A stretch of 64,000 nt of DNA from Myxococcales bacterium (GTDB taxonomy: Bacteria > Myxococcota_A > Polyangia > Polyangiales > Polyangiaceae): NCBI GenBank assembly GCA_012514535.1, contig JAAZAA010000227.1, positions 1 through 64,000 on the forward strand, in the 5' to 3' direction. Positions 277 through 33,351 of this stretch are shown one piece after another. A program made the position numbers and the translations under genes. Position 1 is the stretch's first letter. The number at the start of each line of letters is the position of its first letter. The notes beneath the pieces were generated by a model that was not told where the DNA came from, made no database searches, and saw nothing but the letters and a program-made list of their open reading frames with translations.

Positions 277-1143
277 TCACTCGCTGATCTGGTACTGCGT
301 CGGGAAGAAGAAGCTCACGTTGACCGACATGATCTGGTTGACCTTGAACTGTCGGTCGTCCTCGTTGATCCGGTTGTCGGGGAACGCGCGGTCCGGGCCC
401 GAGCCACCGGTGTCGATGCCGCCGGTGTTCCGCGAGATCGGCAGGAAGCGATACTCCCACCCGAGCGACATCCACTTGCTGAGGTAGAAGCTCAGTCCGA
501 GGCCCGCCGTGGCCGCGATCGCCGTGCGGTCCGCCATGGCGAAGGAATCGGAGCAGTCGCTGCAGTTCGCTCGCTCGTTGAGGCTCACGAAGGCCGGCCC
601 GCCGAAGACGTACAGATCCGTATCGACGTAGACGTTGTTGAAGAGCCCGAGCTTGCCTCGGAAGGGCACCAGGGTCAGCTGCGGCGCGGCCATCCAGTTG
701 ATGGATCCGAGCTGATCCCGGAAGTCCCGCCCCATGTTCACCGCCGTCAGGCGGCAGTCGAGGGAGTCTCCACCACCGTCCCGGCAGGCGCGGCTCGCGT
801 TCACGTCCTGGATGTTGTCCGAGAGGCCCGTGGGCATCTTGAGGGCGCCGAAGGCTCCCCACACGCCGATCCCCAACCAGTCCGTGAAGTGATAGTTCAG
901 CTTCAGGCCCGGCATGATGTGCCGCTGGTACTCGTCCAGGAGGGTGAAGCTGGCATGCGGGGCCACCTCGACGCGACCCTTGCGGTAGAGGCGCAGCTTG
1001 CGCACGGCCGGTGCCCCAGCCAGCGGGCCCGTGACGTGGATCTCCTGGGCCTCAGCCACATCGGGGAGCGCCAGGAACGCACAGAGGGCGGCGAGCGCCG
1101 TAAGGCCGCGGCTCTTCATCTTCGATGCAGTGTTCGTGCTCAT
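277..1143 (-). CDS. Outer membrane beta-barrel domain protein with signal peptide
   Basis: ORF 277..1914 trimmed to MSTNTASKMKSRGLTALAALCAFLALPDVAEAQ (signal peptide); alternating hydrophobic beta-strand pattern and aromatic C-terminus region. Confidence 0.75.
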   Translation of the reverse strand: MSTNTASKMKSRGLTALAALCAFLALPDVAEAQEIHVTGPLAGAPAVRKLRLYRKGRVEVAPHASFTLLDEYQRHIMPGLKLNYHFTDWLGIGVWGAFGALKMPTGLSDNIQDVNASRACRDGGGDSLDCRLTAVNMGRDFRDQLGSINWMAAPQLTLVPFRGKLGLFNNVYVDTDLYVFGGPAFVSLNERANCSDCSDSFAMADRTAIAATAGLGLSFYLSKWMSLGWEYRFLPISRNTGGIDTGGSGPDRAFPDNRINEDDRQFKVNQIMSVNVSFFFPTQYQISE

Positions 1144-1169: not shown

Positions 1170-2141
1170 TCACTGCGCCGCCGTCGTGTCTGCACCAGCC
1201 TTCGGGAGCCGGTACTCGAAGGAGAACGGGATGAAAATGGACGCTCCGATCTGGAGCTGCACGTTGTTCGTCAGGCTCGAGTCGCCGAGCCAGTGAGACT
1301 TGTCCCTGGGATCGAGGCCGCTCGTCTGCGCGTCCTCCAGGTTCTCGAGCTTGTCGAGGAAGACGTAGTCGCGAACCTCGAGGAAGCCCGCGAACCAGCG
1401 GTTGACGAACACCTTCAAGCCGAGGCCGGCGTTGAACGCGAGCTTGGGCTCGAACTCGAAGATCCGGTACTCGGGCTCGATGACGGGAATGGGACGCGTG
1501 CTGATCGCACCGACGCCGCCCACGACGTAGAAGTCGTAGTGGAAGATGAAGTCTCCGAAGCCGGCGAACTTGCCGTTGGCGGGGACGTACGTGAAGTTCA
1601 GCGCCGCACCCCAGTCGTACTCGGTCAGAGGCACGCCGACGCGCGCCGCCCTCCGAACCTGGGCGTTGAACTCCTGATCCGTGTTGAAGGGGCCGTAGTA
1701 GTTTCCGTTGATACCAACGGCCAAGGCTTCGGTGATGTAGTAGTTCACCGCCAAGCCGGGACCAGGGTGCCCGACGAACTGGTCGTTGAGGGAGAGGGAC
1801 CAGTAGGGTTGGAGCTCGAAGCGGTTCTTCTTGATGATGAAGCGCTGCTGGACCGCGATGATCTTCTCGTTGAGCGGTTTCGCGGCCTCTTCTTCCATCT
1901 TCAGGGTGGGGCAAGCTTCGGGGTCGATCTCACAGATGTCACCCAAGCCCGATCCACCGTCGTCGATGCCGATGTCGTCGCCGATGTCGTCGCCGATGTC
2001 GTCGGCTCCATCGTCGTCGACGCCATCTTCGACGCCCTCTTCGATGGCGTCCGCATCCTCGTCAGCATCCTGTGCCCAGCTGGCAGTCGGAACCGCCCAC
2101 AATGCGGCTGCCGCAAGGAGCCCGAAGCGAGTCTTCTTCAT
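1170..2141 (-). CDS. Outer membrane beta-barrel domain protein with acidic Asp-rich N-terminal segment
   Basis: Start MKKTRFGLLAAAALWAVPTASWAQ (signal peptide), then DDIGDDIGDDIGIDDGG repeat and beta-barrel-like body. Confidence 0.75.
   Translation of the reverse strand: MKKTRFGLLAAAALWAVPTASWAQDADEDADAIEEGVEDGVDDDGADDIGDDIGDDIGIDDGGSGLGDICEIDPEACPTLKMEEEAAKPLNEKIIAVQQRFIIKKNRFELQPYWSLSLNDQFVGHPGPGLAVNYYITEALAVGINGNYYGPFNTDQEFNAQVRRAARVGVPLTEYDWGAALNFTYVPANGKFAGFGDFIFHYDFYVVGGVGAISTRPIPVIEPEYRIFEFEPKLAFNAGLGLKVFVNRWFAGFLEVRDYVFLDKLENLEDAQTSGLDPRDKSHWLGDSSLTNNVQLQIGASIFIPFSFEYRLPKAGADTTAAQ
1971..2006. repeat. 12-bp coding tandem repeat (gatgtcgtcgcc, about 3 copies)
   Basis: Read directly; encodes the DDIG repeat in the beta-barrel protein. 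Confidence 0.85.
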
Positions 2142-5603: not shown

Positions 5604-6075
5604 GTGTCCGGCGGCATCGTACACGAGCGGAGGAGCGGCGCACGGCGAAAGGCCGTTCGGAGGCAGGCGCGCGAGGGTCGTTCGGTCCCGAAGTGCTCGA
5701 GGTGAAGCTCGAGGTGTGTTTGTCTGGCGGGGCGCTGCCGTCCTGGGCGGGGTGAGGGGAAGCATCGACCTGCAGAGGAGTGATGGCCGGTGGTGGTCGG
5801 TGCCGCTCCGCCGGAGGTGGCGCCAGTTCGGGGAGCGTGTGGGATGGTTCGATCGTCGGGTACCGCCCGGGGGTTGTCGGGGGGTGCGCCGGCGATCCGC
5901 GGGCACGGGCGCACAGGAGCTGCAGCCGAAAGGTGGGGTCATCTCCGTGGTACGGGAGGTCGGCACTCACAGGGACACACGAAACTGCGGCGCGCCGGGA
6001 AGGCAAAGGACGGAGCGGACGAAAACCCTACGACCCACTCTCCCAGGTCATCCGAACGTGATATCGTCCTCCGAC

Positions 6076-6891
6076 ATGCAGCGCTTGCTGGTTGCCACCC
6101 TCGTCGCTTCGGCGCTCACGTTCGGAGGCGTGGTGACCCCCCGCACTGCGAGCGCACAGGACGCGGTCGAGCGGCACATCGCACTGCTCAAGCGCAGTGA
6201 TGACTTCCGCGTGCGGACCCAGGCCGCCCTCGCCCTGGGCGCGTCGAAGGACAAGCGGGCGCTCGTGCCCCTGTGTCACGCCCTCGACGATGGAAACCGC
6301 ACGGTGCGCATCGCTTCGGCGTCCGCGCTGGGACGCCTGCGCCTCGGAGGGAAGGGCTGCCTGGAGCGGCGTTTGAGCGTCGAGGATCAGGAGGCGGTGA
6401 AGTCATCGATCCAACGCGCCCTCGAGGCAGTGGGCGGCGCGAGCGCGGAGGAGGCGGCGCCGACGATTGATGGATCCACCAAATACTACGTCGCCCTGGG
6501 CAAGGTGGTGAACGCGTCGCCGGAGCACGCGAGCAAGGTGCGCGCGAACATGACCGGCGCCGCCCGTGAGCTCGGCGGTTACGCGGTGGCCCCCGAGAAC
6601 GAGACCCAGGCGCAAGCTCAGGCGCTCCTGAAGAAGCACCCCAAGGTCAAGGCCTTCTATCTCGCCCCGACCTTGACGCCGCCGTCCTACGAGGGGGGGA
6701 ACCTGACGATCCGGATTTCGGTCGCGATGCTCAGCTATCCCGACAAGGTCATGCTGGGGCAGTTCTCCGTGAAGCTCACACAGGAGGGCGTCTCGGGGAA
6801 GAACCCCCAGGCGGAGCTGGAGCTCGTCGGCATGGCGGCGGAGAGCGCCATGAAGAAGTTCGCCAAGCACGCAGGAGCTCTTGGATCCTGA
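6076..6891 (+). CDS. Exported HEAT-repeat domain protein
   Basis: MQRLLVATLVASALTFGGVVTPRTASAQ signal peptide, then HEAT-like repeats (RTQAALALGASKDKRALVPLCHALDDGNRTVRIASASALGRL). Confidence 0.75.
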   Translation: MQRLLVATLVASALTFGGVVTPRTASAQDAVERHIALLKRSDDFRVRTQAALALGASKDKRALVPLCHALDDGNRTVRIASASALGRLRLGGKGCLERRLSVEDQEAVKSSIQRALEAVGGASAEEAAPTIDGSTKYYVALGKVVNASPEHASKVRANMTGAARELGGYAVAPENETQAQAQALLKKHPKVKAFYLAPTLTPPSYEGGNLTIRISVAMLSYPDKVMLGQFSVKLTQEGVSGKNPQAELELVGMAAESAMKKFAKHAGALGS

Positions 6892-7113
6892 GGTGACACG
6901 GCGTCGAGGCGCGTCCGTCGGAGGTCCGCGGGGCGAGGCGTGGGTGGGGATTCTTGCACGCGGGCGCGTGACCACCCTACGATCCAAAGAGCGCGCCGCG
7001 CGCCCCCGGCCGGGAACCATCACGGAAGACCTGCAAAGGCGCTTCTCCCCGCCGCTCCCCGAGAGATCCTAGTCCAGGCATCCTACGTCCAAGCAAGAGC
7101 GAAGCAGGCGATC

Positions 7114-7905
7114 ATGTCAGATGCAGCAATGACAGTGCGACGTGGCGGACAGGGAAAGCGACGCGTCCGCAACTTCCTCCTCGATCGGAACTTCCAGCTC
7201 AAGTACGCGGGCTACCTCGTCGCCATCGCGCTGGTGCTGAGCGTCTCCTTGGGGGCGGTGTTGTGGCGCACGGGCGCGACCGTGGTGGCGCAGAGTCGCG
7301 AGAACGTGCGGCGGGGTGAGCAGATCGTCGCCCTCGGCAACGAGGTCGTCAGCGAGTCGCGCAAGGTCAGCGCCGTGGTCCGGATGAACATCGTCAAGGA
7401 TCCCGACTACCGGGACAATCCGGACCTGTTGGCGGCCTTCAACGCGGATGCGGAGTCCCAGGACGCCCGCCTCGCGTCCCAGCAGCGTCAGCTGGAGCAG
7501 CAGCGCATCGAGCTCGCGGAGCAGTCGGAGCACCTCGCCTCGTCACAGCGGCGCATGCTGTGGACCCTCGTGGTCGTCCTGCTCGTGCTCGTGCTCGCCA
7601 TCGGCGCCGCGGGCATCGTCGTCACCCACAAGGTGGCCGGGCCCATCTTCAAGATGAAGCGGCAGCTCGGGGACGTCGCGCAGGGCAACCTGCGCTTGCC
7701 CGCCGGGCTGCGGAAGGGGGACGAGCTCGTCGAGTTCCACGAGGCGTTCCGCGAGATGGTGGTCCGCTTGAGAGAGGACCGGGAGCGACAGCTCGCCGTG
7801 ATCGACGCGACCCTGGCGGAGCTCGCCGAGAGGAGCGAAGGAGCACGGCTCGAGGGGTTGCGAGAGCTGCGCGCCGATCTCGAGCGCTCCCTCGAGCCGC
7901 GATGA
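7114..7905 (+). CDS. Membrane HAMP-domain signalling protein without recognisable output domain
   Basis: Two TM helices flanking a periplasmic coiled segment; HAMP-like GPIFKMKRQLGDVAQGNLRLPAGLRKGDELVEFHEAFREMVVRL. Confidence 0.7.
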   Translation: MSDAAMTVRRGGQGKRRVRNFLLDRNFQLKYAGYLVAIALVLSVSLGAVLWRTGATVVAQSRENVRRGEQIVALGNEVVSESRKVSAVVRMNIVKDPDYRDNPDLLAAFNADAESQDARLASQQRQLEQQRIELAEQSEHLASSQRRMLWTLVVVLLVLVLAIGAAGIVVTHKVAGPIFKMKRQLGDVAQGNLRLPAGLRKGDELVEFHEAFREMVVRLREDRERQLAVIDATLAELAERSEGARLEGLRELRADLERSLEPR

Positions 7906-8421: not shown

Positions 8422-9084
8422 TCAGTCGTTGTAGGGCGGGTTCGCGCCGCCGCCGCCGCAGTTGCCTTCTTCGGGGTTGCACTCGCGGACGTCCGAGTCC
8501 GTCTCGTACTGGGTACCGTTCTTCACGCAGTACGATCCGGCGAGCTGCTCACGCCCGACGCCCAGGTTGTCCACCAACTCACGGCAGGTGAAGCCGCTGG
8601 GGCACTCGCAGTAGTTCGCGTTGGGATCCGGTCCCGCGCAGCGACAGGAGCAGTACACCGCTCGGTCCGCCCGGCGCTCCACGCGCTGGGGCCGCACGGC
8701 GACGCTGATACGGTCCTCGACCTGGGAGCCGTCCTGCCCGGGGACGCGGCAGGAGGCCGCATAGTCCGGCGACCCCGGCATGCAGTTCGCGGGATCCTTA
8801 CACTTCTCGGCCGTCTCCTCCGTCTGGCCGTAGGGGCAGCTCACCCGTCCCTGGAAGTGATTCACGAGGCAGACGCGCGTGAGGCACTGGAACGACTTGC
8901 TCTCGACGTTCACCTGCTCCACGGAGTAGCCCGTAAAGTCCGCGGCGTACTCATCCTCGGGCGTGCAGGGATCGCCCACGCCGCCAGGCTCGCACCCCAG
9001 GCTCAGCAGTCCCGTCGCCAAGAGCCCCAACGCAGCCAGGAGGCGGGCCCCGCGAACACTGTTCTCGCGCATAGTTTTCCTCAT
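8422..9084 (-). CDS. Cysteine-rich lipoprotein, function unknown
   Basis: MRKTMRENSVRGARLLAALGLLATGLLSLGCEPGG lipobox; many Cys residues. Confidence 0.7.
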   Translation of the reverse strand: MRKTMRENSVRGARLLAALGLLATGLLSLGCEPGGVGDPCTPEDEYAADFTGYSVEQVNVESKSFQCLTRVCLVNHFQGRVSCPYGQTEETAEKCKDPANCMPGSPDYAASCRVPGQDGSQVEDRISVAVRPQRVERRADRAVYCSCRCAGPDPNANYCECPSGFTCRELVDNLGVGREQLAGSYCVKNGTQYETDSDVRECNPEEGNCGGGGANPPYND

Positions 9085-9718: not shown

Positions 9719-9748
9719 TTGACAAGTAATTGCAGTGGTATCTAACAT
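9719..9748 (+). promoter_or_regulatory. Candidate sigma70-type promoter upstream of the TPR/glt-like locus
   Basis: TTGACA (9719-9724), 18-bp spacer, TAACAT (9743-9748). Confidence 0.4.
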
Positions 9749-9980: not shown

Positions 9981-11687
9981 ATGTTTCGAAAGCGCATTGC
10001 GGCAGTCAGTGTCATCGCAGCTGCCATGTTCGCGGGAGGAGTGACGACTCCTCGCCCCGCCCACGCTGCCGACGTCATCGACTTGGACGAAGAAGACAGC
10101 GGGGGCGTCATCGACCTCGATGAGGGGGATGCAGCTCCTCCGCCCGCCGTCGTAGCCGGAGACATGACGGAGGAAGCCGCGGCCGCGAAGCGTGCTTTCG
10201 ACCAGAAGCGCTGGCCCGAAGCCGCCCAGGGGATGTTCCGGGTGGTCGCAGGTGAGACGGGGGACGACCCCGGGAACCGTCAGCTCGCCGAGTACTACCT
10301 GGCGGTCTCCCTGTACAACCTCAAGTTCTTCCAGGCGAGCTTCGCGATCTTCAGCGTGATCGCGGACAACCCGAACCACCTGCGGTTCAACGAGACCCTG
10401 CTCTGGCTGGCCAAGCTCGCCACCGACCTCCCCGAGGCGGCGGACATCATCGCCCGCGTCGGTAAGTACGGCGACGAGCACCTCGCGCGCTTCGACAACA
10501 AGGAGCAGCGGGAGCTCTACTGGCAGCTCAACTACATGTTGGGGCGCTACAAGTACCAGCAGGGCGACTACGAGGAGGCGATCCGGCTCTTCCAGAAGGT
10601 CGATCGCCAGAGCCCGCAGTACGTCAGGGCGCAGTTCTTCACCGGCATCAGCTACGTCCGAGTGCGGAAGTCGGTGCCCGCCGTCAAGGCCTTCCAGCGC
10701 ATCGAGAAGGCGATCGCCGAGGGCACGAAGGGCGTCGAGGACGAGAACCGCATGCTCGACCTCGCGAAGCTGTCGATGGCGCGGACGTTCTACTCCGCCT
10801 CCATCCGGCTCGATCCCGAGACGAACGCTCCGACGATCGATGAGACGAAGCTGAGCGCGGCGGTCAAGTACTGGAACGAGGTCGAGGAGAACAGCGAGTA
10901 CTGGCTCGACGCACACTTCGAAGAGGCCTGGGCCTACTTCATGGCGGGTCAGTACACCCGCGCTCTCGGCAACATCCACACCCTGAACGCTCCGTACTTC
11001 CCCAAGGCGTTCTACCCCGAGGCGGACATCCTCAAGGCGGTCGTCTACTTCACGAACTGCGACTACGACCGCGCGACGATCGTCGTGGCGCGGTTCCAGC
11101 AGAAGACCCAGCCGGTCAAGGAGGAGCTCCAGAAGGTCCTCCAGAAGTACAAGGGGGAGAACCAGGACGAGGAGTTCTACAAGTTCCTCATCCAGGTCCG
11201 TGAAGGGAAGGCGAATCTGAACGAGACGGTGGAGCCCATCGTCGAGTCGGCTCTCAGCGATCGCAATCTCCTCCGCAACATCGAGTACGTGCGACTGCTC
11301 GAGGAGGAGGAGAAGCGGTTCAAGAAGGCGCCGCCGACCTTCCAGAACTCGGCCATCGGTACGCAGGTCGAGCAGTCGCTCGAGCTGGCCAAGACGCTGG
11401 CGAAGAAGCGAGCCGGCAGGCTCGCTCGTCAGCGGTACCAGAGGTACGTGGACGAGATGGATGAACACATCCGTAACGGTGACAAGATCCTGATCGACAT
11501 CGTTGCGGCGAAGCGAAATTTGCTCGACCAGGCCATCACCGAAGGTCAGGTCAGCGCGGCCGAGTCGAAGCTCTTCGGCGTGGTCAACCCGGACGACGAG
11601 CACTTCATGTGGCCCTTCGACGGTGAATACTGGCGCGACGAGCTCGGCTTCTATCGTCAAGAAGTCCAGTCGGCTTGCGGGAGATAA
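9981..11687 (+). CDS. Exported TPR protein (possible GltC-like)
   Basis: MFRKRIAAVSVIAAAMFAGGVTTPRPAHAAD signal peptide; TPR-like helices; first gene of the TPR cluster. Confidence 0.75.
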   Translation: MFRKRIAAVSVIAAAMFAGGVTTPRPAHAADVIDLDEEDSGGVIDLDEGDAAPPPAVVAGDMTEEAAAAKRAFDQKRWPEAAQGMFRVVAGETGDDPGNRQLAEYYLAVSLYNLKFFQASFAIFSVIADNPNHLRFNETLLWLAKLATDLPEAADIIARVGKYGDEHLARFDNKEQRELYWQLNYMLGRYKYQQGDYEEAIRLFQKVDRQSPQYVRAQFFTGISYVRVRKSVPAVKAFQRIEKAIAEGTKGVEDENRMLDLAKLSMARTFYSASIRLDPETNAPTIDETKLSAAVKYWNEVEENSEYWLDAHFEEAWAYFMAGQYTRALGNIHTLNAPYFPKAFYPEADILKAVVYFTNCDYDRATIVVARFQQKTQPVKEELQKVLQKYKGENQDEEFYKFLIQVREGKANLNETVEPIVESALSDRNLLRNIEYVRLLEEEEKRFKKAPPTFQNSAIGTQVEQSLELAKTLAKKRAGRLARQRYQRYVDEMDEHIRNGDKILIDIVAAKRNLLDQAITEGQVSAAESKLFGVVNPDDEHFMWPFDGEYWRDELGFYRQEVQSACGR

Positions 11688-11692
11688 TCGAG

Positions 11693-14600
11693 ATGCACAT
11701 CAAGCACGCGAAGACCGTTGTGGCCACCTTGTGTGGCCTGCTGTTGACTACGGCGTCGGCCCTGGGGGCGGACGCGCGCAAGATGAGCGCCGAGTGCGTC
11801 TCGCCTCAGGCATACAAGAACATCGAGGAGTGCCCCGGTGGCCCCGCGAAGTTCGAGGGGAAGAAGCGCAAGGGCACCTCATTCAAGAGCAAGCCGCCGC
11901 CAATCGAGACGAAGAAGCGGACGGACGCCAAGCCCGGCGACATCGGCGCCCTCGAGAAGCTGATCGAACGTGATACCCGCAAGGGCAAGATGCAGCAGCG
12001 CGTGAAGAGTCTGCTCATCACGGAGATCACGGGCCTCGAGCGCCTCTACAAGTCGACGCCCGACAAGTCGAAGGACAAGCCGCAGCTGACCTTGCGTCTC
12101 GCGGAGGCCTACGCGGAGCTCGAGCAGTCGGCGATCCGCGAGAAGATCGCGACCGACATCGCGATCCAGGACGCGAAGAAGAAGAAGAAGGACACCTCGA
12201 AGCTCCGCAAGGAGGTGGCCAAGGCCAAGCAGATGGAGAAGGCTGCTCGGGCCAAGGCCATCGCGTACTACCGCGTGATGGCGTCCAAGTACTCGAGCTA
12301 CTCGAAGATCGACGAGGTGCTCTACTACCTCGCGTACGAGTACGAGCAGGCGGGCGACCTGCAGAACGCCCGGAAGACGTACTACGAGTTGATTGAGAAG
12401 GCGCCGAAGTCGCCGTACGTCCCGAACGCCTACCTCGCCTTCGGTGAGCTCTTCTTCCAGGAGGCCAGCGCGGACCCGTCCAAGTGGGCCCTGGCCGAGG
12501 CGGCTTACAAGGAGGTGGTGAAGTACCCGCCGCCGAACAACAAGCTGTACGGCTACGCGCACTACAAGCTCGGCTACGTGTACTGGAACCAGGGCATGTA
12601 CAAGCAGGCCCTGGCCGAGTTCAAGAAGGTCATCGAGTTCGGCAACACGCACTCCCAGCTGCCGAACGCCAAGCAGCTCGCCAACTCGGCGCGCCGTGAC
12701 CTGATCCCGGTGTACGCGGCCAGCGAAGCGCCGAACAAGGCGTTCGTGTACTTCAAGCCGCTCGCCGAGGGGAAGACCGACGAGAACGCCATCAAGATGA
12801 TGCGCGATCTCGGGTATGCCTACCTCGACACCGGCCACTACGCCGAGGGCATCGAGCTCTACAAGGACCTGATGTCCCGGGACAAGGGTGAGCACTGGTG
12901 CGAGTACCAGGGCCAGATCACCACGGCGGTCCAGGCGGCGTACTCGGCGGACAAGGAGCGGATCAAGCGCGAGCTCGATCAGCAGCTGGAGATCCGCAAG
13001 CAGTTCAACGGCATGAAGGTGCCGGAGAAGGCCAAGCTCGCCTGTGACAACAAGACCGCCGAGCTCCTCTCCGAGACGGCGATGAGCTGGCACCTCGAGG
13101 CGGTCGGTACGGGCGGCGTGCGCGGCACGAACAGCCCGCAGACGATGGACCTGGCGGCGTACATCTACAAGAAGGTCGCCGACAACTTCACGTCGGAAGA
13201 CTTCGCCAAGTTCGAGTTCCCCCGCATCGTCAAGGAAGACTGGCCGACGATCTACAAGATCAAGTACGCCATGGCGGACCTCCTCTACTTCCAGCAGCGC
13301 TGGGAGCTCTGCGGTCCGGCCTTCGACGCGGTGGTCGCCGAGAACCCGAAGGGTCCCGACGCAGCCGAGGCCGCGTACGCTTCTGTGCTCTGCTACCAGA
13401 AGATGTACGACCAGATGCACAAGGGCGGCAGCGACCGGAAGGGCAAGGGCCTCGGTCCGAAGGGCGCCTCCGAGGAGGATCGCCAGGCCGCGAAGGGCGA
13501 GTGGGAGAAGTTCAAGCCGAAGGAAATGTCCGAGATGCAGAAGGGCATGGTCACGGCTTTCAACCGCTACGTCTGCTACATCACCCCGAAGGCCGGCGAC
13601 ACCGAGGCCGAGGAGCAGTACGTCGAGGTGAAGTACGCGCGTGCGCGCACCTACTTCGAGGCGCAGCACTGGGAGGAGGCGGCGCTCGGCTTCCGAGACA
13701 TCGCCATCAACCACGCGGACAAGGACGCGGGCATCTTCGCCGCCCAGCTCTACCTCGAGGCCGTGAACGTGCTCGGCTCCAAGGCGGAGCCGCCGCGACC
13801 GGCGTGCTTCGACGACATGGCCGCGGACGTGCCGATCTTCCTGAAGAACTACTGCCAGGGCTCGGCCTACGAGGACAACAAGGAGCAGTGCGAGCTGCTG
13901 ACCCGCATCGAGTTCGACGTGAAGCGTCTCGCGGCGCAGAAGAAGGTCGAGCTGGCGGACAACCAGGCGGACAAGGGCGACTACAAGAGCGCGCTGGAGA
14001 ACTACAAGGCGGGCGGCGACGCCTACCTCGACCTCTGGCGGGGCTACTGCGAGAAGCCCATGGCCGCGGGTGAGAAGGTCAAGCAGTGCGAGACCGCCCA
14101 CGAGATCGTCTACAACATGGCGCGGGCCTACCAGGCTGGCCGTCTCCTCGCGAAGTCGATTCAGGCGCGCATGATCCTCCTGAATCCCAAGTACGGGATG
14201 CAGAACACGGACCTGGCGCTGAAGGCGACCTACGAGATCGGCGGCAACTACCAGGCCATCGCCGTGTACGACAAGGCGGCCGACTTCTACGAGCGGTACG
14301 CGAGGGACTCGAAGTTCCGTGGCGAGAACGCCGACCAGGCCCTGAGCGACGCGGTGGTGTTGCGACTCGGTCTGGGCCAGGAGGACAAGGCTCTCGAGAC
14401 GGCGACGCTGTTCCAGCGGAACTTCGGCGCTCGGAAGCCGGCCCAGGCGGCGCAGATCGGCTTCGCCATCGCGGCGAACTACGCGGACAAGGGTGCATGG
14501 GACGATGCGCGCAAGAGCCTGACCGGTTCGATGCGACTCATCGACTCCAGCGCCACGCTCGACGTGCGACTCCAGGCCCACGCCCTGCTCGGTCGCGCCT

Positions 14601-15376
14601 ACGAGAAGCTGAAGAGCAAGCCGGCGGCAGATCGCGAGTACCGGACGGTCGTGTCCCTGTGGTCCGACCCGAAGAAGGCGGTCGCGGCGATCGAGAAGGA
14701 CGGCGGGCCTCGTGAGCTCGGTCGTGCCCTCGAAGCCGTGGGTGAGGCGCTCTTCTACTTCGCCGAGCAGAAGAAGGAGAAGGTCGATGCCTACGCGTTC
14801 CCGAAGTACAACGGACCGAAGGACCGGGAAGGCATCAACAAGCACATCAGCACCAAGGTCAAGGACTGGTACACGAAGAAGCGCGACATGATCGCCGAGG
14901 TGAGCAAGGAGTACGAGAAGGTCGTCCTTCTCGAGCCCGTGCCTCCGCCGAAGTGGGTCATCGCGGCCGGTTCGCGCGTCGGTGAGATGTGGGGCAAGTT
15001 CGTCGCGGACTTCCGCTCTGCGCCGATCCCCAAGGAGTGGGAGCGGGACTTCGAAATCCGGACCGCCTACTACGGCGCGCTGGACGACGCTTCCGAGCCC
15101 TTCAAGAAGCAGGCCCGCGGTGCTTACGAGATCTGCCTCGGGTACTCGGTGAAGTACCAGTACTTCGACGGGTTCAGCCGGTCCTGCGAGGAGTGGCTCG
15201 CCGAGAACTACAAGGCCGAGTTCGCCCTCATCGACGAGTTCCGCGGAGCTCCGACCCGCGTGAACGACCCGCTCCGTGAGCAGGCGTACCCGCTCCGAAT
15301 CGGTGGTGAGCCGATGGTGAGTGCGCCCACGGTACCGGTGGAGGAACAGAAGAAGCAGGAGGCGGCCAGCAAGTGA
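11693..15376 (+). CDS. gltD: Large exported TPR protein, AgmU/GltD-like
   Basis: 1228 aa, signal peptide, multiple TPRs, size and neighbourhood like Myxococcus AgmU. Begins 6 bp after the previous stop. The symbol is an inference. Confidence 0.6.
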   Translation: MHIKHAKTVVATLCGLLLTTASALGADARKMSAECVSPQAYKNIEECPGGPAKFEGKKRKGTSFKSKPPPIETKKRTDAKPGDIGALEKLIERDTRKGKMQQRVKSLLITEITGLERLYKSTPDKSKDKPQLTLRLAEAYAELEQSAIREKIATDIAIQDAKKKKKDTSKLRKEVAKAKQMEKAARAKAIAYYRVMASKYSSYSKIDEVLYYLAYEYEQAGDLQNARKTYYELIEKAPKSPYVPNAYLAFGELFFQEASADPSKWALAEAAYKEVVKYPPPNNKLYGYAHYKLGYVYWNQGMYKQALAEFKKVIEFGNTHSQLPNAKQLANSARRDLIPVYAASEAPNKAFVYFKPLAEGKTDENAIKMMRDLGYAYLDTGHYAEGIELYKDLMSRDKGEHWCEYQGQITTAVQAAYSADKERIKRELDQQLEIRKQFNGMKVPEKAKLACDNKTAELLSETAMSWHLEAVGTGGVRGTNSPQTMDLAAYIYKKVADNFTSEDFAKFEFPRIVKEDWPTIYKIKYAMADLLYFQQRWELCGPAFDAVVAENPKGPDAAEAAYASVLCYQKMYDQMHKGGSDRKGKGLGPKGASEEDRQAAKGEWEKFKPKEMSEMQKGMVTAFNRYVCYITPKAGDTEAEEQYVEVKYARARTYFEAQHWEEAALGFRDIAINHADKDAGIFAAQLYLEAVNVLGSKAEPPRPACFDDMAADVPIFLKNYCQGSAYEDNKEQCELLTRIEFDVKRLAAQKKVELADNQADKGDYKSALENYKAGGDAYLDLWRGYCEKPMAAGEKVKQCETAHEIVYNMARAYQAGRLLAKSIQARMILLNPKYGMQNTDLALKATYEIGGNYQAIAVYDKAADFYERYARDSKFRGENADQALSDAVVLRLGLGQEDKALETATLFQRNFGARKPAQAAQIGFAIAANYADKGAWDDARKSLTGSMRLIDSSATLDVRLQAHALLGRAYEKLKSKPAADREYRTVVSLWSDPKKAVAAIEKDGGPRELGRALEAVGEALFYFAEQKKEKVDAYAFPKYNGPKDREGINKHISTKVKDWYTKKRDMIAEVSKEYEKVVLLEPVPPPKWVIAAGSRVGEMWGKFVADFRSAPIPKEWERDFEIRTAYYGALDDASEPFKKQARGAYEICLGYSVKYQYFDGFSRSCEEWLAENYKAEFALIDEFRGAPTRVNDPLREQAYPLRIGGEPMVSAPTVPVEEQKKQEAASK

Positions 15377-15458
15377 GCCGCGACGCGGGCCGCTGTGAGG
15401 TCGGGAGGCATTCCGACGCGCGGCGGCCCGCACGCTGACCAAGAACGGAGATGACGAG

Positions 15459-16952
15459 ATGAAGACGTTCAGTGGACTTGCAGCGATTGCCCTCTTGCTT
15501 GGGGCCGTGGCTTGCGGTGGTAGCAGCAAGAAGGCTCTGGACCCCGACCTGGCGAGCGGGAAGAAGGACCGCAGCGGCAACATGGTGGCCAAGGCGGCGG
15601 AGAAGGGCTTCAACGATGCCCTCGACGACTTCGCGGCTCAGGACCGCGCGGCGTCGTGGAACGACGCGACCTGTGATCGGGTCGCCAAGGCGTTCCTCGC
15701 GGCGTCGGACAAGCAGAAGTCGTTGGCCGGCAACGTGCTGCCCGAGGCCATCTACAACGCGGGCCTGGCCTATCAGCGCTGTGGCGACGACGCGAAGGCG
15801 AAGGAGCAGTTCTCGAAGGCCCTGGCGGAGGAGTCGGAGTTCCACCGCGCGCGGGCGCAGCTGGCGCTCTACAAGTTCCAGGAGACCAAGGACCTGGACA
15901 CGGCGGTGCGGGAGCTGGACCAGATCATCCGGGACGCGAAGTTCCAGAACGTGGAGGCGCTCGTCAGCCTCGCGGCGCTACAGATGCAGCGGGGTGGCAA
16001 CGTCAGCGGCACGGGCTGTGACGACGACATGAGCTGCGCGCAGCTGAACCTGCAGCGCGCCCTCGCGATCGACGACAGCTTCATGCCGGCGTTCAACCAG
16101 CTCGCGCTCTATTACCTGGAGCAGGCGCGCCTCAAGGCGGGTCAGAAGAAGTCGGCGAAGGGCAAGGGCGGCCTGGTCGTGGCCGGCGCGGCGGCGACCA
16201 AGGCGAACGCGCAGCAGCTCGACCTGGCGGCGCTCGTGGCCTCCCAGGCGCAGAAGAAGAACCCGAACTACGCGCCCATCCACAACACCAGCGGGCTCAT
16301 CCTGGTGGAGCTCCAGAACTACAACGGAGCGGTGAAGGCGTTCGGGACGGCGCGCAAGCTGGACCCGCGCTTCTTCGAAGCGCACATGAACTACGCGGCC
16401 GTGAACCTGTCCTTCCGCGGCTTCGCGGAGGCGGAGAAGGCGTACCGCGAGGCCCTGAAGCTGCGTCCCGACACCTATGAGGCGCATCTCGGGCTGGCGC
16501 TGGCCCTGCGCGGGCAGATCACGCCGTCGAACATGACGAAGTACGTGGCGGAGGTGCAGAAGCACCTGGACGCGGCGAAGAAGATCGACGGGTCACGCCC
16601 GGAGGCCTTCTACAACGAGGCGATCCTCTCGCAGGAGTTCCGCGCCAAGACGAGCGAGGACCCCATCCCCGCCTACGACAAGGCCATCGCGCAGTACGAG
16701 GCCTTCATCTCGAAGGCGAGCGGGGACCCTGCCTTCGCGGACGCGGTCAAGCGCTCGAAGGACCGCGTGCAGGACATCACCGACACGAAGCAGTTCATCA
16801 TCGACGGGCGTGAGATTGAGCGCCAGCAGAAGGAGATCGACGCCCAGATGAAGGCGGAGGCGGAGGCGGCCAAGAAGGCAGCGGAGGCCGAGAAGGCCGC
16901 CGCGGACAAGGCCGCCGCGGCGGACAAGCCAGCGGAGACCGCCAAGCAGTGA
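15459..16952 (+). CDS. gltE: TPR lipoprotein, AglT/GltE-like
   Basis: MKTFSGLAAIALLLGAVACGGSSKK lipobox followed by TPRs; position after the gltD-like gene. The symbol is an inference. Confidence 0.6.
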   Translation: MKTFSGLAAIALLLGAVACGGSSKKALDPDLASGKKDRSGNMVAKAAEKGFNDALDDFAAQDRAASWNDATCDRVAKAFLAASDKQKSLAGNVLPEAIYNAGLAYQRCGDDAKAKEQFSKALAEESEFHRARAQLALYKFQETKDLDTAVRELDQIIRDAKFQNVEALVSLAALQMQRGGNVSGTGCDDDMSCAQLNLQRALAIDDSFMPAFNQLALYYLEQARLKAGQKKSAKGKGGLVVAGAAATKANAQQLDLAALVASQAQKKNPNYAPIHNTSGLILVELQNYNGAVKAFGTARKLDPRFFEAHMNYAAVNLSFRGFAEAEKAYREALKLRPDTYEAHLGLALALRGQITPSNMTKYVAEVQKHLDAAKKIDGSRPEAFYNEAILSQEFRAKTSEDPIPAYDKAIAQYEAFISKASGDPAFADAVKRSKDRVQDITDTKQFIIDGREIERQQKEIDAQMKAEAEAAKKAAEAEKAAADKAAAADKPAETAKQ

Positions 16953-16992
16953 GCCCGACCGTGTCGCTCGGCAGCGGCGCGGGGGCGTGAAG

Positions 16993-17029
16993 GACGAGGA
17001 ACGCACCCCTGAGGGGAGCGTTCCTCGTC
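16993..17029 (+). terminator. Perfect 12-bp stem-loop after the gltE-like gene
   Basis: GACGAGGAACGC (16993-17004) / GCGTTCCTCGTC (17018-17029); weak U-tract. Confidence 0.55.
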
Positions 17030-17209
17030 GCGCATTTGGCGAGCACCCGTTGGCGGCGAGGATTGACGGAGCAGAAGACAAGCAGACAGTTCGACGATGG
17101 GCACCGAGAGCGGAAGCGTCTTCGAAGATTTTTCGACATCGTTCGGGAACTTTGGTGGGCCCGCGATGTCAGATTCGGTGCCTGACGCGGCTGGATCTCT
17201 CGGCCGCTG

Positions 17210-17239
17210 TTGACGACCCCTGGGAAACCCAGGTACACT
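17210..17239 (+). promoter_or_regulatory. Candidate sigma70-type promoter with palindromic spacer
   Basis: TTGACG (17210-17215), 18-bp spacer containing CCTGGGAAACCCAGG, TACACT (17234-17239), upstream of the 17278 ORF. Confidence 0.5.
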
Positions 17240-17277
17240 GATACTGGAAAACAACGGAAAGTTTCGACGAGGCTGAA

Positions 17278-17547
17278 ATGAAGCGTTCGGGCAAGGTGAG
17301 CTTGGTGGCTGGTTTGGTTGGTGTTTCGCTGCTCGTGGTGGCGCCCTCGGCGTTTGCCCAGGCTGCCAAGGAGAGCGGCGGTGACGACGGCTACGGGTAC
17401 GAGTTCTCCGACGACCCGCTCAGCGCCGGTGGCTTCGGCCCCAACGACTCGACCATTCGAGTGCGGGCCAAGGCGCAGCGCACCACCCTGATCCGGCCGC
17501 GGACCTCGTTCGTTCCCGAGATGCTCAAGTCGGTCGAAGACCTCTGA
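17278..17547 (+). CDS. Small exported protein (possible GltF-like)
   Basis: MKRSGKVSLVAGLVGVSLLVVAPSAFAQ signal peptide, 89 aa, located between gltE-like and gltG-like genes. Confidence 0.6.
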   Translation: MKRSGKVSLVAGLVGVSLLVVAPSAFAQAAKESGGDDGYGYEFSDDPLSAGGFGPNDSTIRVRAKAQRTTLIRPRTSFVPEMLKSVEDL

Positions 17548-17645
17548 GCCCTGATTCCCCTCCGACGTTGACCCGATTCTTTCTCGTCACTTCCCCGTGA
17601 GCTCACCGGTGAGCGAATCGAGGAGTGCGTCTAGGTAACCCCGAA

Positions 17646-19682
17646 ATGGCAAAAGCGGTTCTCACATTTGCGCTCTACCAGGGTGACAGCCTCCTGCGTC
17701 GTGAAACGGTCACGCAGGACATCGTCAAGGTCGGTAGGGATCCCAAGAGTCACCTTCAGGTAGAAGACGAGCTGGCGTCGCGGATGCACGCCGTGATCGA
17801 GGTCGCTGGCCCCGATGACATCACGCTCATCGACCTGGGGAACGAGCCGGGCACCCTCGTCAACGGCGCGAACGTGAACAAGTGCAAGCTGCACGTGGGT
17901 GACCAGATCCAGGTCGGCGGAACGCTGATCGTCCTGGAGCGCGCCGAGGCCGCGGGAGCAGAGGTCGCCGCGCCGGTGGCTGCCGCTGCCGCCGTCTCCT
18001 CGAACCCGTTCGCGGCGAGCGCCGCGGCGGTGGCACCTCCCGCTTTCGGTGCCGCAGCTGCTTCGAACCCGTTCGCCGCAGCCGGCGCTTCGAACCCGTT
18101 TGCTGCTGCGGGGGCCTCGAACCCCTTCGCAGGTGCGGCCTCGAGCCCGTTCGCGTCCGCCGCGTCTCACGCTGTGCCGGACGACGCGCCCCCTGGCACG
18201 TACACGTACACCATGCTCAAGAGCGGGCCCGACGTGCCTCCGGACGAGGTGGAGTCGAACGCGCCCGCGGTGGAGGTGATGGTGCTGTGGGACACGAACG
18301 TCCTGCACGTCTCGCACCTGGCTCCGCCCCGCAACTTTTACGTCGGTGAGGAGGAGGGGAAGAACTTCTCCTGTGATTTCTTCGTGCCGAGCGAGAAGCT
18401 GGGGACGACCCGGATGCCGGTCGTCATCGGCGATGCGGCGTCCGTCGCGGTGGTGATCCCGCCGGGTGCGACGGGCCACGTGGAGATCGCTGGCCAGCCG
18501 CGGATGAGCCTGGATCAGGCGCGAGCGCAGGCGCAGCCGTGCTCGGAGCTCAGCGGCGCGCATCAGCTTCCGCTGCCGAACGGGGCGAAGGCGCGCGTCG
18601 AGCTCAACGGCTTCGTCTTCCAGGTCGCCGCGGTGAACGCGGGCAAGCCCATCAAGAAGGGCCTCGCCGCGGGCATGGACTGGACGGTGGCGATGTACTT
18701 CGGCCTGTCGTTCCTGTCTTTCGGCGGTTTGATTGCGGCGATGGCTTACTTCGTCCCGCCGATGGGCCTCACGGACGAAGGTGAGATCGACAAGGATCGC
18801 CTGCTGTTGATTCAGCAGTACCTCAATGCGGCGGCGGAGCGTGAGCAGGAGGAGAAGACGGAAGACGTCGTCTCCGAGAACGCCGATAACAAGGAGGGCG
18901 GTACCGGTACCCGAGCCAAGGGCGAAGAAGGCTCGATGGGTAAGGAGACGAGCAAGGCGACGAACAAGCGCTATGCCGTCCAGGGTCCGAAGGACAACCC
19001 GGATCCACACCTCGCGCGCCAGGCGGCGCTCCGTGAGGCTCGGGACTTCGGCATGATCGGCCTGTTGAACGCCGGCGCGGCGGGCGATCCGAACGCCCCG
19101 ACGGCGCCCTGGGGTCGTGACACCTCGTCCGGTATGGATGACGTCAGCGCCCGCGGAAACATGTGGGGCGACGAGATCGGTGACGCGTTCGGCGCCGGCG
19201 GCCTCGGTCTGTCTGGTATCGGCGAAGGTGGTGGTGGCCGCGGCGAGGGTATCGGCCTCGGCAACATCGGCACCTTGGGTCATGGCGCGGGCACCGGTTC
19301 CGGTCAGGGCTTCGGCGCTGGACATGGCCGCCTCGGCGGGTCCCACAAGACGAAGGCTCCGAGCGTCCGCATGGGTGCCACGACCGTGAACGGGCGCCTC
19401 CCGCCGGAGGTCATCCAGCGTATCGTCCGGCAGAACTTCGGTCGCTTCCGCATGTGCTACGAGCAGGGGCTCTCGCGGAACCCGAACCTCGAAGGGCGCG
19501 TCGGTGTGCGCTTCGTGATCGGTCGTGACGGCGCGGTGTCGACCGCGGGCAACGGTGGCTCGGATCTGCCGGATACGGGCGTGGTGAGCTGCGTGGTGTC
19601 GGCCTTCTACGGGCTGAGCTTCCCGCAGCCGGAAGGCGGCATCGTGACCGTCGTGTATCCCATCATGTTCAGCCCCGGTTGA
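17646..19682 (+). CDS. gltG: FHA-domain, single-TM protein with AgmX/PglI (TonB-like) C-terminal domain; GltG/PglI-like
   Basis: FHA region (VGRDPKSHLQVEDELASRMHAVIEV...LGNEPGTLVNG), TM (MYFGLSFLSFGGLIAAMAYFV), Gly-rich linker, C-terminal GRLPPEVIQRIVRQNFGRFRMCYEQGL...GRVGVRFVIGRDG. The domains are clear; the symbol is an inference. Confidence 0.7.
   Translation: MAKAVLTFALYQGDSLLRRETVTQDIVKVGRDPKSHLQVEDELASRMHAVIEVAGPDDITLIDLGNEPGTLVNGANVNKCKLHVGDQIQVGGTLIVLERAEAAGAEVAAPVAAAAAVSSNPFAASAAAVAPPAFGAAAASNPFAAAGASNPFAAAGASNPFAGAASSPFASAASHAVPDDAPPGTYTYTMLKSGPDVPPDEVESNAPAVEVMVLWDTNVLHVSHLAPPRNFYVGEEEGKNFSCDFFVPSEKLGTTRMPVVIGDAASVAVVIPPGATGHVEIAGQPRMSLDQARAQAQPCSELSGAHQLPLPNGAKARVELNGFVFQVAAVNAGKPIKKGLAAGMDWTVAMYFGLSFLSFGGLIAAMAYFVPPMGLTDEGEIDKDRLLLIQQYLNAAAEREQEEKTEDVVSENADNKEGGTGTRAKGEEGSMGKETSKATNKRYAVQGPKDNPDPHLARQAALREARDFGMIGLLNAGAAGDPNAPTAPWGRDTSSGMDDVSARGNMWGDEIGDAFGAGGLGLSGIGEGGGGRGEGIGLGNIGTLGHGAGTGSGQGFGAGHGRLGGSHKTKAPSVRMGATTVNGRLPPEVIQRIVRQNFGRFRMCYEQGLSRNPNLEGRVGVRFVIGRDGAVSTAGNGGSDLPDTGVVSCVVSAFYGLSFPQPEGGIVTVVYPIMFSPG
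18061..18141 (+). repeat. 27-bp coding repeat encoding GASNPFAAA-type units
   Basis: Repeated ASNPFAAAG in the FHA-protein linker. Confidence 0.75.
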
Positions 19683-19716
19683 GGGCGACCCGCGGAGCGC
19701 GGGGAATGAGTCGAGT

Positions 19717-19748
19717 GAAGACGCCGCCTCCGGGCGGCGTCTTCCATT
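19717..19748 (+). terminator. Intrinsic terminator after the FHA/AgmX-C protein
   Basis: GAAGACGCCGCC (19717-19728) TCCG GGCGGCGTCTTC (19733-19744) followed by CATTTT. Confidence 0.85.
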
Positions 19749-20639
19749 TTGTCCGCGAGGGAACCGGTGCGGCGGACGCTGTGTGGGGGCTCCGTGTGCC
19801 GAGCGTCGGAGGCCGGGTCGCGCCGCCATGCGGTGTACGTCACCGTGGAGTCCCGGGGGTGCGTCGGGGAGGATGCGGCGGACGTGGCAGTGAGTGGAGC
19901 TCGCGGGCGTCCCTGGCGGATGGGGAGCCAGGGAGGAGCGGCGGGCAGGGGCGCCGAGAGGAGGCGCCAAGGGGGGAGCGGCTCGAGGGGAGGGCCCCGG
20001 GAGCACTGCACAGCGAAGCAGGAGTGTTCCGCTATCCCCTGGCGGCCAGGGGCCGCGCTTCGGCCGGCGTGGCGGAGGGGGAGGCGGGTGCGGGGGGGAC
20101 TAGGCCCTATCGCGGTGACCTGCTCGCGTGGAGGAGGCTATCAATGACGATCAGCGTGGACGCTCGGCGCGAGCCGAGTGGTCGGTGCCGTCGTGGATTC
20201 CGGGAGCGCACGCCCGATCCAGAATGGGCTCTCGTAGCTGACCGCGAGGTAGTTGGGAGAAGGGAGCGCAGCGCGAAGGAAGGGCCAACGCCGAGGTCGG
20301 TGGGCGTCCGCCTCTCCTGGGATACTGGCGGTGGGTCCGACGCGTTCAGGGGCGAGCGCAGGGATGGCGCAGGGGGTGACGATAGACGCTGGGGGAGGCT
20401 GTAAGCCTACATTTCGTGATGCAGATTCCTGGGGACTCGGGTTTCGATGTGCCTTTACTTCGCCGGCCGCGTCCGCCTATGCTCTCCGCCAACTTTCGAG
20501 GTGCGCGCTCGTTCCCGGGCACGGAGCAGCGTGCAACCCGACGGAATGGCCAGAGTTTTGGTCACGACTTTTCTAACGCATCTCTGTTATCTGTCCGGCG
20601 CGGGTGAAGTTTGAGCGGACGCGCGCAAGGGAGTCGGGT

Positions 20640-21560
20640 ATGAAGCTGACGACGAGCATCAAGCGCGCAGCACTCGCCATGAGTGTTGCCTTTGGCGTGG
20701 CCTCGACCGGTTGTAGCCGGGACCACATCGAGGCGGTGAACCTCGCGAACGAGGGGGACCGGGCGGTCACCGTGAACGTGGAAGGGGCCATCCAGAAGTA
20801 CGAGCAGGCGCGGCAGCTGGATCCCACGAACCACCTGATCACGTGGAAGCTCGCGAAGGCCTACGAGCGGAAAGAGGACTGGGACAAGATGGCCGCGACT
20901 CTGGCCGTCGCCGTCCAGACGAACCCGGAGTTCGCGAGCTACTGGGAGAAGCGTGGCTTGGCGCTCACGAAGCTCGCCGAGGCGGGGAACCCCGACAAGT
21001 GGGAAGAGGCGAAGGAGCCGCTGAAGAAGTGCATCGAGGCGGATCCGAACCGGGCGTGGTGCTATCAGCTCCTCGGCGAGGCGCACTGGTGGACCGATGA
21101 TGAGCAGTCGGCGTTGCAGAGCTTCACGCAGGCCATCGAGCACGATCCCACGGTGCCGTACTTCTACGTGACCTTGGCGGAGCTCTACCAGACGCTGAAG
21201 TTCTACAAGGAGGCGCAGGCGGTGCTCGAAGAGGGCACCAAGCTGGTGCAGCCGACCGAGGACAATCGGGATCACCTGTACAACATGCACCTGCTGACCT
21301 TCAACGTCGCGCAGTTCCGCCAGGACAAGCCCGCGATGTTGGCGGCCGTGGAGCGCGCCTACGAGATCGGTGGTCAGAACCACCCGGAGGCGAAGTTCCA
21401 CCTCGGCAGCACCTACGCGAGCATGGACCCGCCGCAGCGCGAGAAGGCGAAGCGACTCCTCGAGTCGTTCTCGAAGGGCGCCTGCAAGGGTGAGGCGGCA
21501 AAGAAGTTCAAGGATCAGTGCGCGCAGGCCAACGCGTTCATTCAGAAGCTGGGGAGCTGA
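20640..21560 (+). CDS. TPR lipoprotein
   Basis: MKLTTSIKRAALAMSVAFGVASTGCSRD lipobox; TPR repeats. Confidence 0.75.
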   Translation: MKLTTSIKRAALAMSVAFGVASTGCSRDHIEAVNLANEGDRAVTVNVEGAIQKYEQARQLDPTNHLITWKLAKAYERKEDWDKMAATLAVAVQTNPEFASYWEKRGLALTKLAEAGNPDKWEEAKEPLKKCIEADPNRAWCYQLLGEAHWWTDDEQSALQSFTQAIEHDPTVPYFYVTLAELYQTLKFYKEAQAVLEEGTKLVQPTEDNRDHLYNMHLLTFNVAQFRQDKPAMLAAVERAYEIGGQNHPEAKFHLGSTYASMDPPQREKAKRLLESFSKGACKGEAAKKFKDQCAQANAFIQKLGS

Positions 21561-21750
21561 CTTGCTCCAAGCCGTCGAGCCGACCGACGTTGACCGCTTG
21601 TGCGGAGAGCAGGGAGATGCGGGACGTGGGGCACCCCTCGCGTCCCGCCCCTTTGTGGAGACAACGTGTGGGGCAAGGTGCGCCTTGGAGATGACCCGCG
21701 GGGTAGGGCGGGCCTGAGGCGCACGAGAGCTCTGCGAGAGCGAGGATGTC

Positions 21751-33351
<11,601 letters not shown>

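What the first reader, a model, noticed from the sequence alone, without database searches (positions are those of the whole stretch)
9981..33351. Glt-like (gliding motility / trans-envelope) gene cluster with a possibly merged arrangement
Seven co-oriented genes encode: exported TPR (568 aa), exported TPR (1228 aa), TPR lipoprotein (497 aa), small exported protein (89 aa), FHA-TM-Gly-rich-AgmX/PglI C-terminal protein, TPR lipoprotein (307 aa) and a giant TPR protein (3866 aa). Sizes and order recall the Myxococcus xanthus G1 cluster (agmU/gltD, aglT/gltE, gltF, gltG, agmK/gltI). The first gene could correspond to gltC, which in M. xanthus lies in a separate cluster with the OM beta-barrel genes gltA/gltB. 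If so, this genome may retain a different or more ancestral layout. No AgmX/GltJ homologue with zinc finger/GYF and no AglRQS (TolQR-like) motor were seen in this window, so the power source must lie elsewhere or the complex has another role.
Basis: partly seen in the sequence, partly recalled or inferred. Interest (0 to 1): 0.8.

Follow-up and report, generated by a model that had tools for sequence, protein, structure and literature searches.

The report
Gliding-machine gene cluster, common merged layout
This stretch of an uncultured myxobacterial (Polyangiales) genome encodes most of the known envelope-spanning Glt gliding machine in one place, which turns out to be the usual arrangement in its phylum rather than an oddity, while its motor genes sit on another part of the genome.

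Summary
Seven co-oriented genes at 9981-33351 encode homologues of Myxococcus GltC, D, E, F (CglF), G, an extra TPR lipoprotein (here "T6") and GltI. The interpretation needs three changes. (2) The merged layout is not unusual: gltC sits next to gltD in loci of at least 16 family-level groups of the phylum, and published work already reports grouped G1/G2 in Anaeromyxobacter and a merged nfsA-H. M. xanthus is the outlier. (3) The missing parts are in the same genome on other contigs: GltJ (zinc ribbon and GYF both match solved M. xanthus AgmX domains), two divergent TolQ-TolR-TolR motor sets, and mglBA. The sixth gene is not GltH (a 209-aa outer-membrane protein in M. xanthus). It is a TPR lipoprotein found in that slot across the phylum, without an NCBIfam name: the most interesting loose end. 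Verdict: new member of a known kind, moderate interest; gliding is inferred, not shown.

The parts
277..1119 (-). GltB-type 8-stranded outer-membrane beta-barrel (280 aa)
   Evidence: TIGR04565 OMP_myx_plus E 5.1e-16, 59.1 bits against a cut-off of 60. AlphaFold2 model with eight long strands, mean pLDDT 67; Foldseek best hits OprF and OmpA barrels, E 8e-7. Assignment as GltB rather than GltA is by order only.
1170..2141 (-). GltA-type 8-stranded outer-membrane beta-barrel (323 aa)
   Evidence: TIGR04565 E 1.6e-23, over cut-off. AlphaFold2 eight strands, mean pLDDT 68; Foldseek best hit OmpA, E 4e-7. Homologues lie directly upstream of gltC in the distant genome G002 (24-25% identity, E 3e-19 and 1.8e-16). 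Only two strong TIGR04565 loci in this genome, C152 and C313.
9719..9748 (+). Promoter-like site upstream of gltC (TTGACA-18-TAACAT)
   Evidence: Consensus scan only: 3 sites found in 13 kb, 0.8 expected.
9981..11687 (+). gltC, exported periplasmic TPR protein (568 aa)
   Evidence: NF033756 gliding_GltC E 6.6e-75, 253 bits over profile 91-619/622; curated cut-off 450 not reached, as in 236 of 237 phylum genomes.
11693..15376 (+). gltD (agmU), exported TPR protein (1227 aa); 5 bp after gltC
   Evidence: TPR domains. No NCBIfam model. About 49-74% identical to full-length Polyangia homologues in the same context; size near M. xanthus GltD, 1191 aa (PMC3169522).
15459..16952 (+). gltE (aglT), TPR lipoprotein (497 aa)
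   Evidence: NF033758 gliding_GltE E 5.2e-17; a general TPR model scores slightly higher. Lipobox AVAC in the sequence.
17278..17547 (+). gltF/cglF, small exported protein (89 aa, the same length as M. xanthus GltF)
   Evidence: NF033764 gliding_CglF E 3.9e-5, matching to the last residue of the model. C-terminal motif around LI..R..F...LKSVE[DN] conserved across families.
17646..19682 (+). gltG (pglI): FHA domain, one TM helix, Gly-rich region, AgmX/PglI tail (678 aa)
   Evidence: NF033760 gliding_GltG E 8.3e-104 over profile 5-647/650; NF033768 myxo_SS_tail 81 bits, over cut-off; PF00498 FHA.
19717..19744 (+). Terminator-like hairpin after gltG (12-pair stem, weak T tract)
   Evidence: Consensus scan; suggests gltG and T6 may not share one transcript.
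20640..21560 (+). T6: TPR lipoprotein (306 aa) in the slot between gltG and gltI; not GltH
   Evidence: TPR domains; lipobox STGC in the sequence; same slot in the Polyangia loci and in distant families f4, f7, f8, f14, f19, f29.
21751..33351 (+). gltI (agmK), giant TPR protein without signal peptide (3866 aa)
   Evidence: Many TPRs; position next to T6 conserved; M. xanthus GltI is 4132 aa (PMC3169522).

Best explanation
The locus encodes the transducer part of a myxobacterial Glt gliding machine. GltG sits in the inner membrane, with its FHA domain in the cytoplasm and a TonB-like tail in the periplasm. GltC, GltD, GltF, the lipoproteins GltE and T6, and the giant GltI carry force across the envelope. 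The two OmpA-like barrels at 277-2141 (GltA/GltB) anchor it in the outer membrane. A proton-driven TolQ-TolR-TolR motor (AglR-AglQ-AglS type), encoded elsewhere in the genome with GltJ and MglA/MglB, moves the inner-membrane part. Coupling to the outer-membrane part at surface contacts then pulls the cell forward. Shown here: the genes, their homologies, the conserved synteny, and the presence of motor, GltJ and MglAB genes. Inferred from M. xanthus: assembly, force transmission and gliding as the output.
For: Family matches to GltC, GltE, CglF and GltG, those of GltC and GltG over most of the model. Two TIGR04565 barrels with OmpA-like predicted folds. The C-D-E-F-G-T6-I order is kept in nearly all checked Polyangia loci, including Sorangium, Polyangium and Minicystis, with the barrels and ftsY upstream where the fetched stretch reaches that far, and in distant families of the phylum. 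Own genome: GltJ at C107 with zinc ribbon and GYF matching PDB 7zok (E 3.1e-8) and 7z3c (E 1.1e-9), both M. xanthus AgmX. Two R-Q-S motor sets at C107, each TolR-like protein with its membrane Asp (sequence). MglA at C441 matching M. xanthus MglA, E 1.1e-106, with an MglB-like gene before it. Of the 20 GltC-less genomes listed, none has an AglR-type hit better than 4.7e-29; most GltC-bearing ones do. Biology of the parts: PMC3169522, PMC4488436, PMC3858216, PMC12288465.
Against: No NCBIfam gliding equivalog model reaches its curated cut-off. That cut-off is passed by only 1 of 237 phylum genomes for GltC, so it mainly separates Myxococcaceae-like sequences. GltD and GltI rest on TPR content, size and order. 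Which of the two motor sets is AglRQS is not settled. GltK/CglC and AglZ were not tested, GltH was not found in the locus, and TraA gave only a weak partial hit (E 6e-6). The organism is an uncultured draft genome with no motility data.
Confidence: 0.77

Rival explanations
1. The machine is a Glt/Nfs-type surface transport complex whose main job in this organism is not gliding but moving a surface polymer or adhesin (as Nfs does for the spore coat).
For: Nfs is a paralogous, merged eight-gene cluster that moves Exo polymer on spores with the same AglRQS motor (PMC3858216). Core genes occur in many bacteria without documented gliding (PMC3169522). The genome is small for a fruiting myxobacterium (5.8 Mb).
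Against: Nfs lacks GltI, GltJ and GltK homologues (PMC3858216), whereas GltI is in this cluster and GltJ in this genome. MglA, a gliding regulator, is present. The same locus occurs in the myxobacteria Sorangium and Polyangium. A different, more diverged paralogous set exists at C208 and C313.
Confidence: 0.2
2. Unrelated TPR proteins that happen to sit together and only resemble Glt proteins because TPRs are alike.
For: GltE, T6 and GltI match general TPR models as well as or better than gliding models.
Against: GltG and GltF have no TPRs yet match their gliding models; GltC and GltG matches run along most of the model. The order is conserved across the phylum.
Confidence: 0.03

Closest known systems
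Myxococcus xanthus Glt gliding transducer, clusters G1 (gltD-J, MXAN_4870-4862) and G2 (gltK, B, A, C, MXAN_2538-2541)
   Same: GltC, D, E, F, G and I homologues with similar sizes and the G1 order; GltA/B-type OmpA-like barrels; GltJ, an R-Q-S motor and MglA in the genome.
   Different: gltC is joined to gltD; the barrel pair lies 8 kb upstream on the other strand with ftsY and other genes between; the gltH slot holds a TPR lipoprotein (T6); gltJ is on another contig; GltK was not tested.
M. xanthus nfsA-H spore-coat cluster
   Same: Merged A-H type organisation with the C and D genes in one cluster (PMC3858216).
   Different: nfs has no GltI paralogue and is used in sporulation; the window cluster has GltI and scores far better on the GltC and GltG models (253 and 348 bits) than the genome's own paralogous set at C208 (45 and 98 bits).
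Anaeromyxobacter glt locus and the group-B core complex of other proteobacteria
   Same: G1 and G2 homologues grouped on the chromosome (PMC3169522).
   Different: In non-deltaproteobacteria and Geobacter the motor genes aglRQS are in the same cluster (PMC3169522); here they are on another contig.

Membership tests
Glt gliding transducer (G1/G2) | GltG: FHA domain, TM helix, AgmX/PglI (TonB-like) tail | tested here: met
   NF033760 E 8.3e-104 over profile 5-647/650, myxo_SS_tail over cut-off, FHA; TM helix in the sequence.
Glt gliding transducer (G1/G2) | GltC periplasmic TPR protein | tested here: met
   NF033756 E 6.6e-75 over most of the model.
Glt gliding transducer (G1/G2) | Scores over NCBIfam's curated equivalog cut-offs | tested here: inconclusive
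   GltC 253/450, GltG 348/650, GltE 62/225, CglF 24/90: none reached. For GltC only 1 of 237 phylum genomes reaches it, so the cut-off is not diagnostic for this clade.
Glt gliding transducer (G1/G2) | GltE TPR lipoprotein and GltF/CglF small exported protein | tested here: met
   NF033758 E 5.2e-17 with a lipobox; NF033764 E 3.9e-5 with a conserved C-terminus.
Glt gliding transducer (G1/G2) | GltD and GltI (large TPR proteins) | tested here: inconclusive
   TPR content, size and conserved order fit; no specific model and no M. xanthus sequence at hand for reciprocal search.
Glt gliding transducer (G1/G2) | GltA/GltB outer-membrane beta-barrel pair | tested here: met
   Two adjacent TIGR04565 proteins at 277-2141 (one over the cut-off, one just under it) with OmpA-like 8-stranded models.
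Glt gliding transducer (G1/G2) | GltH outer-membrane protein (209 aa) between gltG and gltI | tested here: not met
   The slot holds a 306-aa TPR lipoprotein. [quoted passage not shown]
Glt gliding transducer (G1/G2) | GltJ (zinc ribbon, GYF, TM, TonB-like tail) in the genome | tested here: met
   C107 (L070 9919-11817, 632 aa): PDB 7zok E 3.1e-8 and 7z3c E 1.1e-9, myxo_SS_tail.
Glt gliding transducer (G1/G2) | GltK/CglC lipoprotein; AglZ | not tested
   No model or reference sequence was at hand.
AglRQS motor | TolQ-like protein followed by two TolR-like proteins with a membrane Asp | tested here: met
   Two such sets on C107. Which is the AglRQS orthologue is undecided.
Glt gliding transducer (G1/G2) | Required for single-cell gliding | not testable with these tools
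   Uncultured draft genome.
Nfs spore-coat complex | nfsA-H only, no GltI or GltJ paralogue | tested here: not met
   GltI at 21751-33351; GltJ on C107; definition from PMC3858216.

The most novel reading that the evidence does not exclude
The phylum-wide Glt unit contains a component not described in M. xanthus: the TPR lipoprotein T6, which is the ancestral occupant of the slot that GltH fills in M. xanthus. In Polyangiales the machine is served by a divergently encoded pair of complete R-Q-S motors, one for the Glt complex and one for a paralogous surface-transport complex.
Probability: 0.35. Interest if true: 0.55.

Novelty: new member of a known kind. Interest (0 to 1): 0.36.

Why it matters
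It puts the split glt layout of the model organism M. xanthus in perspective: the joined gltC-gltD layout is the rule in the phylum. The seven-gene order, with gltA/B, ftsY and yraN nearby in Polyangiales, gives a reliable genomic signature for finding Glt machines in uncultured Myxococcota. It also names a testable extra component (T6) and a paired-motor locus in an order that includes cultured myxobacteria.

Tried and rejected
The 241-aa ORF at 19679-20404 in the gltG-T6 spacer was rejected as non-coding: it was not picked by the codon-usage gene finder and the spacer is shorter in relatives. The idea that T6 is GltH was rejected because M. xanthus GltH is a 209-aa protein found in outer-membrane vesicles with a proposed beta-domain (PMC3169522), whereas T6 is a TPR lipoprotein. 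A second GltJ-like protein at C236 (PDB 7zok E 2.6e-5, 7z3c E 6.8e-5) was kept as a weaker candidate. M. xanthus reference sequences could not be fetched. An attempt to assign the two motor sets to AglRQS or MXAN_3003-5 stayed undecided. TraA was looked for; only a weak partial hit was found. The library searches found no open paper on glt layout in Polyangia beyond PMC3169522.

Full report
Setting. The window is bases 1-64000 of a 71-kb contig (C152) of a 5.77-Mb draft genome in 442 contigs, 98.8% complete. Its closest named relatives by GltD are MAGs of Sorangiineae/Polyangiaceae, so it is a member of Polyangiales (inference).

NCBIfam hits are GltC E 6.6e-75, GltE 5.2e-17, CglF (taken here as the gltF product; 89 aa in both species) 3.9e-5 and GltG 8.3e-104, plus the AgmX/PglI tail over its cut-off. 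GltD and GltI have no model of their own; they are large TPR proteins of the expected size and place (sizes in PMC3169522). None of the gliding equivalog models reaches its curated cut-off. For GltC, only one of 237 genomes of the phylum does, so this says that the protein is not Myxococcaceae-like, not that it is no GltC.

Barrel genes that were missed. At 277-1119 and 1170-2141 on the minus strand lie two members of TIGR04565, an outer-membrane beta-barrel family with few members in this genome. AlphaFold2 models from alignments of Polyangia homologues show eight long strands each (moderate mean pLDDT of 67-68, with low-confidence N-termini and loops), and the best Foldseek matches are OmpA and OprF barrels. 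M. xanthus GltA and GltB are paralogous OmpA-like barrels that bind GltC (PMC4488436). In the distant genome G002 a homologue of the 1170-2141 protein sits directly before gltC, as gltA does in M. xanthus. I therefore call the pair GltB and GltA; which is which is by order only.

Layout. In loci of relatives, C-D-E-F-G-T6-I are consecutive in essentially every case (37/37, 39/39, 30/30, 30/30, 30/30, 31/32), with the barrel pair, ftsY, yraN and four further conserved genes upstream where the stretch reaches that far. Complete or long contigs of other Polyangiales families (G178, G023) and of the same family (G103) show the same. gltC next to gltD was seen in at least 16 family-level groups of the phylum. 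Published precedents are grouped G1/G2 in Anaeromyxobacter and a core complex in one region in other bacteria (PMC3169522), and the merged nfsA-H cluster of M. xanthus (PMC3858216). The joined layout is therefore common and probably ancestral (inference); the split in M. xanthus is then the derived state.

Motor and partners. Contig C107 carries GltJ (632 aa; its zinc ribbon matches PDB 7zok and its GYF domain matches 7z3c, both M. xanthus AgmX). About 20 kb away on the same contig are two divergently transcribed sets of one TolQ-like and two TolR-like genes, the make-up of AglR-AglQ-AglS. By my reading, the divergent pair is present in 33 of 37 Polyangiales genomes. M. xanthus also has two complete sets, AglRQS and MXAN_3003-5, the latter dispensable for motility (PMC3858216). 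Contig C441 carries mglB and mglA; MglA matches the M. xanthus protein at E 1.1e-106. The GltC-less genomes listed lack good AglR-type hits.

The sixth gene. T6 is a TPR lipoprotein of 306 aa. M. xanthus has GltH there, a 209-aa outer-membrane protein (PMC3169522). T6-like proteins occupy this slot in families as far apart as f1, f3, f4, f5, f7, f8, f14, f19 and f29. TPR similarity is unspecific, so the argument is positional. It is the best candidate here for an undescribed component.

Transcription. gltC and gltD are 5 bp apart. A promoter-like site lies at 9719-9748, and a strong hairpin follows gltG at 19717-19744, so the seven genes need not be one transcript.

Paralogues. The same genome holds a second, diverged core set: C-, D-, E-, F- and G-like genes on C208, followed by a gene that resembles polysaccharide-export (Wza-type) proteins by eye, and a barrel plus GltC-like triad on C313. 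If these two belong together, the Glt-like set is merged here and the paralogous set is split, the mirror image of M. xanthus.

Conclusion. This is a Glt-type gliding transducer in the common merged layout: a new member of a known kind. Assembly and gliding are inferred from M. xanthus and untested in this organism.

Noticed in passing
L071 8233-14596 (genome C107, about 36.2-42.6 kb): Two complete, divergently transcribed TolQ-TolR-TolR motor sets; set a is followed by a fourth conserved membrane-protein gene. The divergent pairing appears in 33 of 37 Polyangiales genomes by my reading of the tables.
   Followed up: partly
L075 12-13402 (genome C208): Diverged second core cluster (GltC-, D-, E-, F- and G-like) followed by a gene resembling polysaccharide-export (Wza-type) proteins.
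   Followed up: partly
L136 7256-10855 (genome C313): TIGR04565 barrel, a 262-aa protein and a GltC-like TPR protein in a row, resembling a gltABC/nfsABC triad.
   Followed up: partly
window 3813-5966(-), 6076-6891(+), 6940-7905(+), 8422-9072(-): Four genes of unknown function (CarboxypepD_reg domain protein, exported HEAT-repeat protein, HAMP-like membrane protein, lipoprotein) that stay between gltAB/ftsY and gltC in Polyangiales.
   Followed up: no
L150 679-1881 (genome C441): mglB-mglA pair; MglA matches M. xanthus MglA structures at E about 1e-106.
   Followed up: yes
L137 5157-6614 (genome C236): Second GltJ-like protein with zinc ribbon and GYF domain, matching the solved AgmX domains more weakly than the C107 protein.
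   Followed up: partly
L079 1493-5908 (genome C327, match at 10990-11853): Open frame whose C-terminal part reads as a von Willebrand A-type lipoprotein and matches the CglB gliding adhesin model at E 8e-21, below its cut-off.
   Followed up: partly
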